Shown here piece after piece: positions 6,291 to 43,307 of a stretch of DNA of 64,000 nt (its first letter is position 1; every line of letters starts with the position of its first letter). The position numbers and the translations under genes are program-made. A model generated the notes under the pieces. The model was not told the origin of the DNA. It worked only from the letters and a program-made list of their open reading frames with translations, and searched no databases. This DNA is from Chloroflexia bacterium SDU3-3 (GTDB lineage: Bacteria; Chloroflexota; Chloroflexia; Chloroflexales; Roseiflexaceae), in assembly GCA_009268125.1 (NCBI GenBank), contig WBOU01000011.1:156450-220449 (forward strand), in the 5' to 3' direction.

Positions 6291-7451
6291 CTAGAGGCCA
6301 GCGGTATAGATCAGCTTGTTCGGCGTGCCGCTGGGGTTGCCGGAGATCACGCCGGATGTGGCGTTGTTGACGATCCAGGTCGAGACCGTGGCGGGCGCGG
6401 CGTCGCCATAGACCGACTTGTAGAGCGCACCCAGGCCAGCCACATGCGGCGAGGCCATGGATGTGCCGCTGTAGGTATCCACGCCGTTGTCGATCACGGT
6501 CGAGGTGATGTTGACGCCGGGGGCGTAGGCATCCACGCAGGTGCCGTAGTTGCTGAACGACGCGATCTTGTCGGTCTTGTCCAAGGCGGCCACGGTGAAG
6601 GCGCTGGGCGCGCTGGCCGGCGACTTGTTGCAGGCGTTGGTGGTCTCGTTGCCCGCGGCCACCGCCACGAACACGCCCGAGCTGGTCAGGCTGGCGATCG
6701 CGTTGTTCACCGCCGCCGAGTACGCGCCGCCCAGCGACATGTTGGCCACCGCGTTGGGCTTGTGGTTGGCGGCCACCCAGTTGATGCCCGCGATCACATT
6801 GGCGTTGGTGCCGCGGCCCTTGCAGTTCAGCACGCGCACAGCGTACAGGCTGACCTTCTTGGCCACGCCGTAGGTGGCGCTGCCGATGGTGCCCGCCACG
6901 TGGGTGCCGTGGCCGTTGCAGTCGATGCCATCCTTACCCATCGCATCGTAGGCCACCGAGGCGCGCCCGCCAAACTCGGGGTGCGCGATGTAGATGCCGG
7001 TGTCGATCACGTAGGCGTTCACACCCGCGCCCGTGGCGTTGTAGGTGTAGCTGCCCGAGAGCGGCAGCTGCTTCTGATCAATGCGGTCAAGGCCCCACGA
7101 GTCGCCGCTGCCGATCGTCTGCGTGGTATCGACCGACACCTCCTGATCCTGTTCGATCGCAGCCACCTCGGGCAGGCGCTGCAGCAGGCTCACCTGCGCC
7201 GGGGTCAGGTTGGCGGCGAAGCCATTGATGGCCTTGTCGAAGACGTACTGCGCCTTCAGGCCGCGCGCCGCCAGGGTGGCGGTGGGCCGCTTCCCCGACT
7301 TGAGGGTGACGATGTAGCTGCCCGGCACGGCGGTGGCCGAGTCTGCCGCGCTCACCGGCACCAGGGTGGTGGCGGCCTGCGCGGGGATGGCACCAGCGCC
7401 AAGGGTCACGGCGAGGACAGCCAGAGCGAACAGGCGGATTGGACGATGCAT
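6291..7451 (-). CDS. Secreted proteinase-K-like subtilase (S8), catalytically complete
   Basis: The 386 residues have a signal peptide ending near IPAQA, an I9 propeptide (about 45-104) and an S8A domain. The triad is Asp150 (VIDTG), His181 (NGHGTHVAG) and Ser331 (GTSMASPHVAG), with oxyanion Asn268 (AAGNE). It would be an exported, autoprocessed broad-specificity endopeptidase, fitting a degradative or predatory lifestyle. It is the first gene of the tandem array in the direction of transcription. A consensus sigma-70-type promoter lies about 240 bp upstream. The following copies start 80-110 bp apart, so co-transcription is likely. Confidence 0.95.
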   Translation of the reverse strand: MHRPIRLFALAVLAVTLGAGAIPAQAATTLVPVSAADSATAVPGSYIVTLKSGKRPTATLAARGLKAQYVFDKAINGFAANLTPAQVSLLQRLPEVAAIEQDQEVSVDTTQTIGSGDSWGLDRIDQKQLPLSGSYTYNATGAGVNAYVIDTGIYIAHPEFGGRASVAYDAMGKDGIDCNGHGTHVAGTIGSATYGVAKKVSLYAVRVLNCKGRGTNANVIAGINWVAANHKPNAVANMSLGGAYSAAVNNAIASLTSSGVFVAVAAGNETTNACNKSPASAPSAFTVAALDKTDKIASFSNYGTCVDAYAPGVNITSTVIDNGVDTYSGTSMASPHVAGLGALYKSVYGDAAPATVSTWIVNNATSGVISGNPSGTPNKLIYTAGL

Positions 7452-41875: not shown

Positions 41876-42607
41876 ATGGCCAAGCTGAATCAGATCATCG
41901 CCGTCGAGAAAGGCGTCAAGAGCCGCACCTTCCAGGAGCTGACCGAGGCCCACCACGCGCTGCAGAAGCCCGCGCTGCTGGCCGGGATCGCGCGCACCTA
42001 CCGTCCCAAAGACGACGAGGGCGAGCAGCTCCCGCCCGAGTCGACCAGGGTGCAGGTGCGCGCCGAGGAGATGATCCAGCAGACCGCGCAGATCCTCAGC
42101 CGCCTGTTCGACATCACCGCCACCAAGGACTGGACCAACTGCGTGGCCCAGGCCGATGTGGTGGTGGATGGCCAGGTGCTGCTGGCCAAGGTGCCCGTCA
42201 GCTACCTGCTGTTCCTAGAGAAGCAGCTGATCGACATCCACACCTTTGTGAAGAAGCTGCCCACGCTCGACAGCTCGGAGAGCTGGAGCTTCGACGCATC
42301 CGCCGACGCATGGGCCACCGACGCGGTGCAGACGCTGAAGACCAAGAAGATCCCACGCAACCATGTGAAGGCCGAGGCCACCGACAAGCACCCCGCCCAG
42401 GTCGAGGTCTACTACGAGGATGTGACCGTGGGCTACTGGCGCACCGTCAAATTCTCGGGCGCGCTGCCCGCCAAGCGCGTGAGCGAGCTGCTGGAGCGCG
42501 TGGAGAAGCTGCAGAACGCCGTGAAGTTCGCCCGCGAGGAGGCCAACAACACCGAGGCCACCGACCAGAAGCTGGGCGAGAAGGTGTTCCACTTCCTGTT
42601 TCAGTAG
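41876..42607 (+). CDS. Conserved unknown protein
   Basis: The 243-residue hydrophilic protein starts MAKLNQIIAVEKGVKSRTFQELTEAHHALQKPALLAGIARTY and ends EEANNTEATDQKLGEKVFHFLF. It resembles a conserved bacterial family without known function; I believe a DUF exists for it but cannot name it with certainty. Mostly alpha with a central region WTNCVAQADVVVDGQVLLAKVPVSYLLFLEKQL. AGGAGG precedes the ATG. Single gene. Confidence 0.8.
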   Translation: MAKLNQIIAVEKGVKSRTFQELTEAHHALQKPALLAGIARTYRPKDDEGEQLPPESTRVQVRAEEMIQQTAQILSRLFDITATKDWTNCVAQADVVVDGQVLLAKVPVSYLLFLEKQLIDIHTFVKKLPTLDSSESWSFDASADAWATDAVQTLKTKKIPRNHVKAEATDKHPAQVEVYYEDVTVGYWRTVKFSGALPAKRVSELLERVEKLQNAVKFAREEANNTEATDQKLGEKVFHFLFQ

Positions 42608-42608
42608 G

Positions 42609-42782
42609 GAGTAGGGAATAGGGATCAGGGAATAGGGATCAGGGATTACATCCCTGATCCTTTCGCTTTACCCTTCGCGCCTTCGTGGTGAATCGGTTCT
42701 TTTGTCTCCTTGGTGTCTTCGTGTCTTGGTGGTGAATCGATTCTTTCCCTCTTCGTGTCTTCGCGTCTTCGTGGTAAAAGAA
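42609..42782. repeat. Short tandem GGGAATAGGGATCA plus family A repeats
   Basis: 42609-42660 has GGAATAGGGATCAGG units with an inverted ATCCCTGATCC. 42665-42782 has four family A units in the GCCTTCGTGGTGAATCG / CTTGGTGTCTTCGTGTCTTGG orientation. Confidence 0.7.
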
Positions 42783-42794
42783 TTTTCGCCGCAC

Positions 42795-42823
42795 TTGCAT
42801 CTCGCGGCGCGATGCCCTATCAT
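42795..42823 (+). promoter_or_regulatory. Promoter of the permuted-tRNA unit
   Basis: TTGCAT (42795-42800), a 17-base spacer and TATCAT (42818-42823). Transcription would begin near 42830, about 45 bases before the first tRNA 3' half. Confidence 0.65.
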
Positions 42824-42875
42824 AGAGGCGTGCAGGAGCGCAAGCTGAAGCTTAGGATCAGTTTGATAGGGGCTT

Positions 42876-42948
42876 CGCCGAGGATGGAGGTTCGAATCCT
42901 CCCCCCGCCACCACGCGGCGGGGTAGCCCAACTGGCAGAGGCGCGGCG
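42876..42948 (+). tRNA. Circularly permuted tRNA-like gene 1 (3' half before 5' half)
   Basis: Order in the DNA: anticodon-stem 3' strand CGCCG (42876-42880), variable loop AGGAT, T-stem GGAGG, T-loop TTCGAAT, T-stem CCTCC, acceptor 3' strand CCCCGCC (42903-42909), A73 and CCA (42911-42913). A three-base spacer CGC follows. Then come acceptor 5' strand GGCGGGG (42917-42923), TA (positions 8-9), D-arm GCCC-AACTGGCAG-AGGC, G26 and anticodon-stem 5' strand CGGCG (42944-42948). Acceptor strands pair 7/7 and anticodon-stem strands 5/5. All arm lengths and the five-base variable loop are canonical. The anticodon loop cannot be read because its two sides are at opposite ends of the unit, so no amino acid is assigned. 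Confidence 0.75.
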
Positions 42949-43030
42949 GGCTACCGCCACCACCATCAGACTATCGCTCCAGGCTCAGCATTCACCGCCG
43001 AACGCGAGGTCAAGGGTGCACAGCTAGTAT

Positions 43031-43102
43031 CGTTGGATGCTGGTTCAATTCCAGCCTGCTCCGCCAGATTGTGGAGCGGTAGTTTAATCGCAGAACACGA
43101 CG
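43031..43102 (+). tRNA. Circularly permuted tRNA-like gene 2 (3' half before 5' half)
   Basis: Order: anticodon-stem 3' strand CGTTG (43031-43035), short variable loop GAT, T-stem GCTGG, T-loop TTCAATT, T-stem CCAGC, acceptor CTGCTCC (43056-43062), G73 and CCA (43064-43066). Six bases (GATTGT) follow. Then acceptor 5' strand GGAGCGG (43073-43079), TA, D-arm GTTT-AATCGCA-GAAC, A26 and CGACG (43098-43102). Acceptor strands pair 7/7 (one G-T) and anticodon-stem strands 5/5 (one G-T). Oddities: the D-loop lacks the GG pair and the variable loop is three bases. CTAGTAT before the 3' half and GTGTAAT after the 5' half each look like an anticodon loop, so the anticodon is unresolved. Confidence 0.7.
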
Positions 43103-43163
43103 GTGTAATGATTGACTGGCGCACTTAAACGTGCTCGTGTGTGCAATTGGGCGGTACAAATGG

Positions 43164-43190
43164 GCCTGGGGGATGGCTACTCCCCCAGGC
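43164..43190 (+). terminator. Hairpin ending the permuted-tRNA unit
   Basis: GCCTGGGGGA (43164-43173) pairs perfectly with TCCCCCAGGC (43181-43190). A pyrimidine-rich tail follows, with few consecutive T. Confidence 0.7.
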
Positions 43191-43307
43191 TCCCTTCTTG
43201 CCTGCGCGATTTATTTTATGTCAAATTGAAACAGCCACTGCCGCACGTTTTTCTCACCATATTATTTCATCACGAACCATCAGCGATCATTGATCTTTAA
43301 CCGCTGC

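What the first reader, a model, noticed from the sequence alone, without database searches (positions are those of the whole stretch)
42876..43102. Two consecutive circularly permuted tRNA-like genes in a bacterium
Seen: in both units a T-arm plus acceptor 3' strand plus encoded CCA lies upstream of an acceptor 5' strand plus D-arm. The separated strands match: GGCGGGG/CCCCGCC and CGGCG/CGCCG in the first; GGAGCGG/CTGCTCC and CGACG/CGTTG in the second. Only 3 and 6 bases separate CCA from position 1. Known: permuted tRNA genes with this order occur in red and green algae and some archaea and mature through a circular intermediate; I know of no established case in this type of bacterium. Inference: the transcript is circularised at the anticodon loop and then opened by end processing. 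An ordinary tandem tRNA array cannot explain four matched strand pairs.
Basis: partly seen in the sequence, partly recalled or inferred. Interest (0 to 1): 0.95.

Follow-up and report, generated by a model that had tools for sequence, protein, structure and literature searches.

The report
Double-headed tRNA mimic with DUF7873
Bacteria and phages carry a roughly 320-base RNA gene with two tRNA-like units written in swapped order, found together with one conserved protein of unknown function (DUF7873) in all 80 bacterial genomes compared; the pair likely forms an RNA-protein particle that would mimic tRNA, a kind not described before as far as I could search.

Summary
In detail: two consecutive units in permuted order (T-arm, acceptor 3' strand and CCA, then acceptor 5' strand and D-arm), all four strand pairs as stated. 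The interpretation, permuted tRNA genes matured through an RNA circle, is not supported: the "anticodon" stem runs on into conserved helices and no anticodon loop is conserved. The two units are parts of one structured RNA (window 42834-43156) with a pseudoknot, a promoter-like site and a terminator-like hairpin. In 41 aligned relatives 91.6% of 3226 base-pair cells pair, with changes on both sides at 62 of 79 pairs. The RNA goes with the gene upstream, DUF7873: 80 of 80 DUF7873 genomes examined hold it (74 directly downstream, 6 elsewhere), and in 400 genomes of the phylum RNA and protein occur in the same 23. Phages carry the pair too, usually near tRNA genes. No Rfam family reaches its threshold; nine paper searches found no description. 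It resembles Ro60-bound Y RNA (YrlA) and permuted tmRNA in the tRNA-like part but fails both membership tests. Best reading: a new tRNA-mimicking ribonucleoprotein, possibly nicked by tRNA-processing enzymes at both CCA junctions. Binding, nicking and function are inferred.

The parts
41876..42607 (+). DUF7873 protein gene (PF25283), 243 aa, proposed protein partner
   Evidence: Pfam E 4.7e-118; found in the same 23 of 400 genomes as the RNA
42795..42823 (+). sigma-70-like promoter TTGCAT-17-TATCAT of the RNA gene
   Evidence: sequence; pattern upstream of the RNA in 16 of 16 Chloroflexota-group sequences (six of them closely related Herpetosiphon) and in 21 of 83 overall; shuffled mean 1.8 of 83
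42834..43156 (+). the structured RNA as modelled (model R1), full-length match
   Evidence: 286.5 bits (this sequence was in the training set); covariation
42836..42840 (+). helix S1 5' strand GAGCG, pairs with 42975-42979 CGCTC
   Evidence: 4 of 5 pairs with changes on both sides, 89.8% of cells paired
42844..42853 (+). helix S2 5' strand, pairs with 42980-42989 and crosses S1 (H-type pseudoknot)
   Evidence: 7 of 10 pairs with changes on both sides, 76.3% of cells paired; 7 of the 10 pairs form in the window itself (by eye)
42876..42948 (+). first permuted tRNA-like domain (TLD1), inside the pseudoknot loop
   Evidence: acceptor 97.5%, T-stem 98.0%, D-stem 100% of cells paired; T54 T55 C56 A58 T8 A14 G18 G19 A21 and A73 in 41 of 41 aligned
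42910..42916 (+). TLD1 junction: ACCA then CGC before position 1, predicted processing site
   Evidence: A73 in 41 of 41, C74 in 30 of 41, NCCA in 14 of 41
42975..42989 (+). S1' and S2' strands
42994..43008 (+). helices P3 (42994-42999) and P4 (43003-43008), 5' strands; partners 43150-43155 and 43134-43139
   Evidence: 12 of 12 pairs with changes on both sides, 97.9% and 99.2% of cells paired
43016..43024 (+). helix P5 5' strand, partner 43116-43124
   Evidence: 9 of 9 pairs with changes on both sides, 89.1%
43031..43102 (+). second permuted tRNA-like domain (TLD2)
   Evidence: acceptor 98.6%, T-stem 99.0%, D-stem 95.1% of cells paired; 7 of 7 acceptor pairs with changes on both sides
43063..43072 (+). 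TLD2 junction: GCCA then GATTGT, predicted processing site
   Evidence: C74 in 37 of 41, NCCA in 18 of 41
43161..43193 (+). 3' terminator-like hairpin followed by CTTCTTG
   Evidence: hairpin of 9 or more pairs within 90 nt in 80 of 83 relatives, shuffled 23-31 of 83

Best explanation
The locus is a two-gene module, the protein DUF7873 and a roughly 320-nt noncoding RNA with two permuted tRNA-like units, which likely assemble into one ribonucleoprotein that would mimic tRNA. Shown by sequence comparison: the two permuted units, the pseudoknot and long helices that join them (as conserved, covarying pairs), and the co-occurrence with DUF7873. Predicted: the RNA is transcribed from its own promoter and folds with both tRNA elbows formed. 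Inferred: RNase P and the 3'-end enzymes could cut each CCA/position-1 junction, as in permuted tmRNA, giving a three-piece RNA held by base pairing with two CCA-type ends. Inferred: the particle captures or blocks proteins that handle tRNA, and in phages it serves the same task as the tRNA genes it usually sits near, such as keeping the tRNA pool usable during infection.
For: Covariation: 91.6% of 3226 cells pair, 62 of 79 pairs with changes on both sides, 0 of 500 shuffles reach any measure, sliding by 1-3 columns drops pairing to 36-42%; RNAalifold on its own finds 61 pairs, 51 with double changes. Partner: DUF7873 in 23 of 400 genomes of the phylum and full-length RNA of 60 bits or more in exactly those 23, 14 adjacent and 9 unlinked; of the 80 DUF7873 loci kept from a wider scan (the 80 nearest of 553 confirmed), 74 have the RNA downstream on the same strand and the genomes of the other 6 hold it elsewhere. 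A search independent of the model finds at least one permuted unit in 63 of the 80 loci, each just downstream on the same strand. Phages: permuted units within about 2 kb downstream of DUF7873 in 11 of 11 phage records opened, of 73; annotated tRNA genes within the opened stretch in 9 of 11; RNA above 100 bits in 16 of 20 viral contigs. tRNA mimicry: U8, A14, G19, A21, C56 invariant in both units of 41 sequences, and A73 of unit 1 although unpaired. Insertions of up to 164 nt at the junction leave the 7-bp acceptor intact (L080).
Against: No expression, binding or cleavage data. The fold is predicted from sequence, and the counted structure was partly derived from the same alignment. P1 and S2 are weak (74.9% and 76.3% of cells; two S2 pairs fail in 24 and 31 of 41), and the window itself forms only 4 of the 7 P1 pairs. 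CCA is complete in only 14 and 18 of 41 sequences. TLD1 is replaced by a hairpin in 5 of 80 loci and unrecognisable in one more, so two tRNA heads are not always needed; these six were left out of the alignment. 4 of 20 viral contigs with DUF7873 show no full-length RNA (L175, L176, L190, L191; L191 ends inside the gene, L190 has only its first half). In K480 and RHph_TM16 only one unit is recognised, by weak matches. DUF7873 is not basic (pI 6.3) and has no confident structural relative, so nothing shows that it binds RNA. Two of 11 phage records have no annotated tRNA nearby.
Confidence: 0.62

Rival explanations
1. Tandem Ro60-associated Y RNAs (YrlA): two Y RNAs that tether a Ro60/Rsr ring to a nuclease, with a permuted tRNA-like effector end.
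For: YrlA RF02553 is matched over its full length by each unit (E 0.0017 and 0.072). Published Y RNA structure 6CU1 superposes on tRNA as a circular permutation (PMC11472068, passages).
Against: 26.6 and 21.0 bits against a gathering score of 69. No Ro60 found in this genome by Pfam TROVE, by a wider Ro60 alignment or by a divergent Ro60-like protein. Of the 23 genomes with the RNA 6 have TROVE and 9 a strong Ro60-like match by the wider model (E below 1e-20, a line drawn after seeing the scores; two more, G028 and G238, have only weak vWA-domain pieces). In G356 and G135 partial model matches spanning T-arm to D-arm lie 0.5 and 2.4 kb from the Ro60-like gene and far from this RNA (sequences not inspected).
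Confidence: 0.1
2. The RNA is a 3' regulatory part of the DUF7873 mRNA, a tRNA-like element that controls processing or stability of that message.
For: Downstream on the same strand in 74 of 80 loci.
Against: Unlinked to DUF7873 in 9 of 23 genomes. Promoter-like pattern before the RNA in 16 of 16 Chloroflexota-group sequences, though in few others. In the Microcoleus phage the RNA lies 1.8 kb downstream beyond another gene, in Keelan beyond a tRNA gene.
Confidence: 0.12
3. A tmRNA relative: a permuted, many-piece transfer-messenger RNA for ribosome rescue with DUF7873 in the role of SmpB.
For: Same permuted order, pseudoknot, CCA, no anticodon arm; permuted tmRNA transcripts are cut by tRNA-processing enzymes into two pieces (PMC11915505, passages).
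Against: tmRNA_permuted 16.2 and 10.4 bits against 47; this genome has a standard tmRNA, 172.3 bits; phage Phendrix has a tmRNA as well; G3-U70 in only 3 and 5 of 41; no tag reading frame seen by eye.
Confidence: 0.08
4. Two permuted tRNA genes that mature through a circle joined at the anticodon loop.
For: Order of halves; CCA next to position 1.
Against: No conserved anticodon loop; the stem of unit 2 continues into covarying helices; TLD1 replaced by a hairpin in 5 loci; 62 tRNA-family matches elsewhere in the genome.
Confidence: 0.03

Closest known systems
Y RNA-like YrlA (Rfam RF02553), bound by Ro60/Rsr
   Same: Circularly permuted tRNA-like domain at the tip of a stem; small bacterial noncoding RNA
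   Different: Here two such domains in one RNA with a pseudoknot, DUF7873 instead of Ro60, scores far below the family threshold, and genomes without detectable Ro60
Permuted tmRNA (RF04321 and older RF01849-RF01851)
   Same: Permuted gene order with CCA just upstream of position 1; helix in place of the anticodon arm; pseudoknot
   Different: Two tRNA-like domains, no tag frame seen, G3-U70 rare, standard tmRNA present as well
GOLLD and ROOL RNAs
   Same: Structured RNAs of unknown role in phages, often near tRNA islands (PMC12286853, passages)
   Different: Those form RNA-only cages and are much longer (GOLLD often over 800 nt); no Rfam match to either here
Circularly permuted tRNA genes of algae and archaea
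   Same: Order of halves
   Different: No anticodon loop, no sign of a tRNA product, bacterial and phage hosts

Membership tests
YrlA Y RNA (RF02553) | Rfam gathering score of 69 bits | tested here: not met
   26.6 and 21.0 bits
YrlA Y RNA (RF02553) | Permuted tRNA-like domain | tested here: met
YrlA Y RNA (RF02553) | Ro60/Rsr partner in the genome | tested here: not met
   none found in this genome; 14 of 23 genomes with the RNA have no strong match by the wider model
YrlA Y RNA (RF02553) | Binds Ro60 | not testable with these tools
   needs biochemistry
Permuted tmRNA | tmRNA_permuted gathering score of 47 bits | tested here: not met
   16.2 and 10.4 bits
Permuted tmRNA | G3-U70 alanine identity pair | tested here: not met
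   absent in the window; present in 3 of 41 (unit 1) and 5 of 41 (unit 2)
Permuted tmRNA | Tag reading frame with resume and stop codon | not tested
   inspected by eye only
Permuted tmRNA | Transcript cut into pieces at the CCA junction | not testable with these tools
   no RNA data
Circularly permuted tRNA gene | Anticodon stem closed by an anticodon loop with a conserved triplet | tested here: not met
   stem of unit 2 continues into covarying helices P5, P4, P3
Circularly permuted tRNA gene | Circular RNA intermediate | not testable with these tools
   no RNA data
GOLLD / ROOL | Rfam match | tested here: not met
   none in the window or in 14 relatives that hold the RNA (L033-L040; L094, L110, L117, L153, L168, L169)
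DUF7873 (PF25283) | Pfam gathering score of 27 bits | tested here: met
   393.7 bits over 1-242
3kdq-like fold (Corynebacterium protein of unknown function) | Same fold as the DUF7873 model | tested here: inconclusive

The most novel reading that the evidence does not exclude
A new ribonucleoprotein class shared by bacteria and phages: one transcript is cut by tRNA-processing enzymes at two CCA junctions into a three-piece, double-headed tRNA mimic that DUF7873 holds together, with two chargeable ends that intervene in translation or shield the tRNA pool during phage infection.
Probability: 0.25. Interest if true: 0.95.

Novelty: categorically new. Interest (0 to 1): 0.85.

Why it matters
It would give a highly conserved protein family of unknown function (7,327 relatives scored) a concrete RNA partner, and it adds a structured RNA with two tRNA mimics to the few known. 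Its place near phage tRNA genes ties it to the open question of why phages carry so many tRNAs. Because the pair is small, self-contained and present in Herpetosiphon, Streptomyces and phages of a laboratory Gordonia strain, the idea can be tested directly. It also suggests that permuted tRNA-like modules are commoner in bacteria than the algal and archaeal tRNA literature implies.

Tried and rejected
Ordinary tandem tRNA array with deleted halves: rejected, since the acceptor strands of each permuted unit covary with each other and the RNA model, which has the permuted order, matches 74 of 80 loci.

Y RNA: considered first and given up when the RNA proved to follow DUF7873 and not Ro60. Pfam TROVE alone undercounts Ro60: it misses the Ro60-like proteins of L213 and L219, so I repeated the count with an alignment of six (70 of 400 at E 0.001, 29 strong, the rest weak pieces of vWA domains).

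tmRNA: rejected. Defence system: no PADLOC model matches DUF7873; no PHROG either. Fold clue for DUF7873: AlphaFold2 model of pLDDT 93.1 and pTM 0.70, no PDB match below E 0.1, one viral-library match at E 2.8e-4 with TM 0.2, of no use, second look inconclusive, no significant PDB sequence relative (best E 0.19). Conserved neighbours other than DUF7873: apart from shadow frames over DUF7873, the most widespread other ORF cluster is in 16 of 80 loci (top 25 clusters listed). Promoter pattern: fails in most actinobacterial sequences (21 of 83 overall). Weak full-length model hits in DUF7873-free genomes: G305 46.9, G107 39.6, G070 36.4, G033 27.9 bits; looked at and found to be Y RNA-like units (G305, G033) or tRNA genes (G107, G070). 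In one search the script mis-paired the acceptor of L096 and L156 (163 and 177 nt); the alignment gives 6 and 20, and I do not use those two values.

Papers: nine searches of an open-access library; the word DUF7873 gives 0 papers. Two YrlA papers are not held, so YrlA details come from passages of other papers or recall.

Full report
What was checked. The two permuted units lie exactly where the finding puts them and all four strand pairs hold. Neither ARAGORN nor Rfam at gathering thresholds reports anything in the window. In permissive mode the leading Rfam matches are YrlA (26.6 and 21.0 bits, threshold 69) and permuted tmRNA models.

Relatives. Of 60 genomes searched (this one included), 17 had some DNA match to 42840-43160: this one, eight near full length (G028 in two pieces), and eight with only a short match of about 30-40 bases; four of those eight were scanned and in three the match lies in an ordinary tRNA gene. 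The gene just upstream, DUF7873 (PF25283, E 4.7e-118), is present in this genome and in exactly the eight with the near-full-length RNA, in no other of the 60. A scan of GTDB genomes with DUF7873 kept the 80 nearest of 553 confirmed loci (72-81% identity) in Chloroflexota, Actinomycetota, Armatimonadota, Acidobacteria, Cyanobacteria, a Deinococcales MAG and others, as named in the records. A plain descriptor of a permuted unit, blind to any RNA model, finds one or two units on the same strand just downstream in 63 of the 80. A stricter form gives 101 hits in these loci and 1 in shuffled sequence.

One RNA, not two genes. Aligning 41 sequences (39 of 83 bacterial ones plus 2 phage ones; left out: near duplicates, those with long insertions and the six without a recognisable TLD1) shows that leader, linker and tail are conserved too. 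RNAalifold finds 61 pairs, 51 with compensatory change. With a pseudoknot and P1 added by hand, 91.6% of 3226 cells pair, 62 of 79 pairs show changes on both sides, and no shuffle of 500 comes near. Order from 5': S1, S2, P1, TLD1, S1', S2', then P3, P4, P5, TLD2 and their partners. TLD1 therefore sits in a pseudoknot loop; TLD2 caps a long rod. P1 and S2 are the weak parts (74.9% and 76.3%). In 16 of 16 Chloroflexota-group sequences a sigma-70-like pattern stands just upstream (21 of 83 overall), and a hairpin follows in 80 of 83 (shuffled 23-31).

tRNA character. In TLD1 the residues T54, T55, C56, A58, T8, A14, G18, G19, A21 are the same in 41 of 41; in TLD2 T8, A14, C56, G19, A21 are, with G18 in 27. 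The unpaired discriminator A73 of TLD1 is invariant; C74 follows in 30 of 41 and 37 of 41; full NCCA in 14 and 18 of 41, where equal base use would give below one. In this genome 31 of 35 sampled tRNA genes encode CCA, as both units here do. The stretch between the acceptor strands (CCA included) is mostly 6-10 bases but reaches 117 and 164 in L100 and L080 with the acceptor kept. These points suggest recognition by tRNA-end enzymes; they do not prove cutting.

Natural variants. In five Streptomyces loci (L121, L152, L158, L159, L166) a plain hairpin stands in place of TLD1, and in L122 TLD1 is not recognisable, while TLD2 and the rest stay (by eye). TLD1 is thus modular; in those loci at least it is not a tRNA gene under selection to make a tRNA.

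Co-occurrence. A covariance model of the whole RNA (R1) matches 74 of 80 DUF7873 loci full length, all on the DUF7873 strand; 36 of the 80 were in its training set. The six misses (L091, L092, L093, L095, L099, L109) correspond by coordinates to genomes G027, G039, G030, G042, G238 and G149, which hold the RNA elsewhere. In 400 genomes of the phylum (Chloroflexota, as inferred from named relatives such as Herpetosiphon aurantiacus; this genome included) DUF7873 occurs in 23 and full-length RNA of at least 60 bits in the same 23 and no other; 14 adjacent, 9 unlinked. The 60-bit line was drawn after seeing the scores: lowest positive 67.6, highest full-length score without DUF7873 46.9, highest partial match there 54.4. 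One search lists some match at E 0.001 in 205 of 400; most listed ones are partial matches to the tRNA-like parts, which I take to be mainly tRNA genes without having checked each. Unlinked co-occurrence in several lineages argues for a shared function.

Not Ro60. Pfam TROVE is in 17 of 400, 6 of them with the RNA. Because TROVE misses divergent Ro60-like proteins, I searched with an alignment of six: 70 of 400 match at E 0.001, 29 of them strongly (E below 1e-20), and 9 of those 29 are among the 23; this genome has no match. In G356 and G135 partial matches to permuted units lie nearer to the Ro60-like gene than this RNA does.

Phages. DUF7873 is in 73 of 50,697 phage records and 4 of 72,556 plasmid records. 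I opened 11 phage records of the 73. In 9 of 11 no CDS is annotated for at least 400 nt after DUF7873, and permuted units lie downstream in all 11: R1 full length above 85 bits in six (Racecar and Phendrix, both in the training set; NiceHouse, Keelan, Pam2, Microcoleus phage), 41.6 bits in RHph_TM21B, and unit-level matches in KpLz-2_45, FBKp24, RHph_TM16 and K480. Nine of the 11 have annotated tRNA genes in the opened stretch. Of 20 IMG/VR contigs, 16 have the RNA above 100 bits.

The protein. DUF7873 is 72-86% identical to the window copy across the bacterial phyla sampled and 45-64% in aligned viral contigs. The AlphaFold2 model is confident (pLDDT 93.1, pTM 0.70): long helices and beta strands. 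No structural or sequence relative of known function was found, and no defence or phage family model matches. No other neighbour is shared widely.

Mechanism. I hold the RNP reading likely because protein and RNA co-occur even when unlinked, and tRNA mimicry likely because elbow residues and the 12-bp acceptor/T stack are kept while the paired letters have changed. Nicking at the junctions is by analogy with permuted tmRNA, whose transcripts are cut by tRNA-processing enzymes (PMC11915505, passages; PMC3985003, passages). A decoy for a tRNA-cutting nuclease has been suggested in print for the YrlA tRNA-like domain (PMC7790460, passages) and would fit the phage setting; I have no test of it.

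Novelty. No Rfam family covers it in the window or in 14 relatives examined, and nine paper searches found no description. The library is open access only, so a description elsewhere cannot be excluded. The permuted tRNA-like domain itself is known from Y RNA (PMC11472068, passages) and permuted tmRNA; the double-headed RNA and its DUF7873 link are what is new.

Noticed in passing
L213 3010-3670, L216 (minus strand) 91-983, L218 792-1785, L219 (minus strand) 2236-2850: Clusters of three or four permuted Y RNA-like units in genomes without DUF7873; in L213 and L219 they lie beside a divergent Ro60-like vWA protein that Pfam TROVE misses (the L219 protein matches a TROVE protein with BLAST E 6e-9).
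   Followed up: partly
L121, L152, L158, L159, L166; L122: Relatives in which the first tRNA-like unit is replaced by a simple hairpin or is unrecognisable while the second is intact.
   Followed up: partly
L170 10711-11573: Rhizobium phage RHph_TM21B has DUF7873 with its RNA and, further on, another set of permuted units followed by a TROVE protein gene.
   Followed up: no
L212 6018-6097; L134, L138, L148, L149: Permuted units are misread as tRNA genes: a suppressor tRNA annotated in phage FBKp24 overlaps one, and ARAGORN calls tRNA-Phe in several Streptomyces copies.
   Followed up: no
L081 (G006) and G356: DUF7873 frame broken (one TGA and a frame change in G006; three pieces in G356) while the RNA scores full length.
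   Followed up: no
L080 minus strand 6474-6953; L100 8921-9355; L101 10767-11159: Insertions giving 91 to 164 nt between the acceptor strands, in L080 with repeat-like hairpins, leaving the acceptor stem intact.
   Followed up: no
window 42608-42790: Short imperfect repeats (agggaataggga, cttcgtgtcttcgtgg) fill the gap between DUF7873 and the promoter-like site of the RNA.
   Followed up: no
L217 5488-5719: T-box-like match (89.8 bits, threshold 93) on a Ro60-bearing contig of G033.
   Followed up: no
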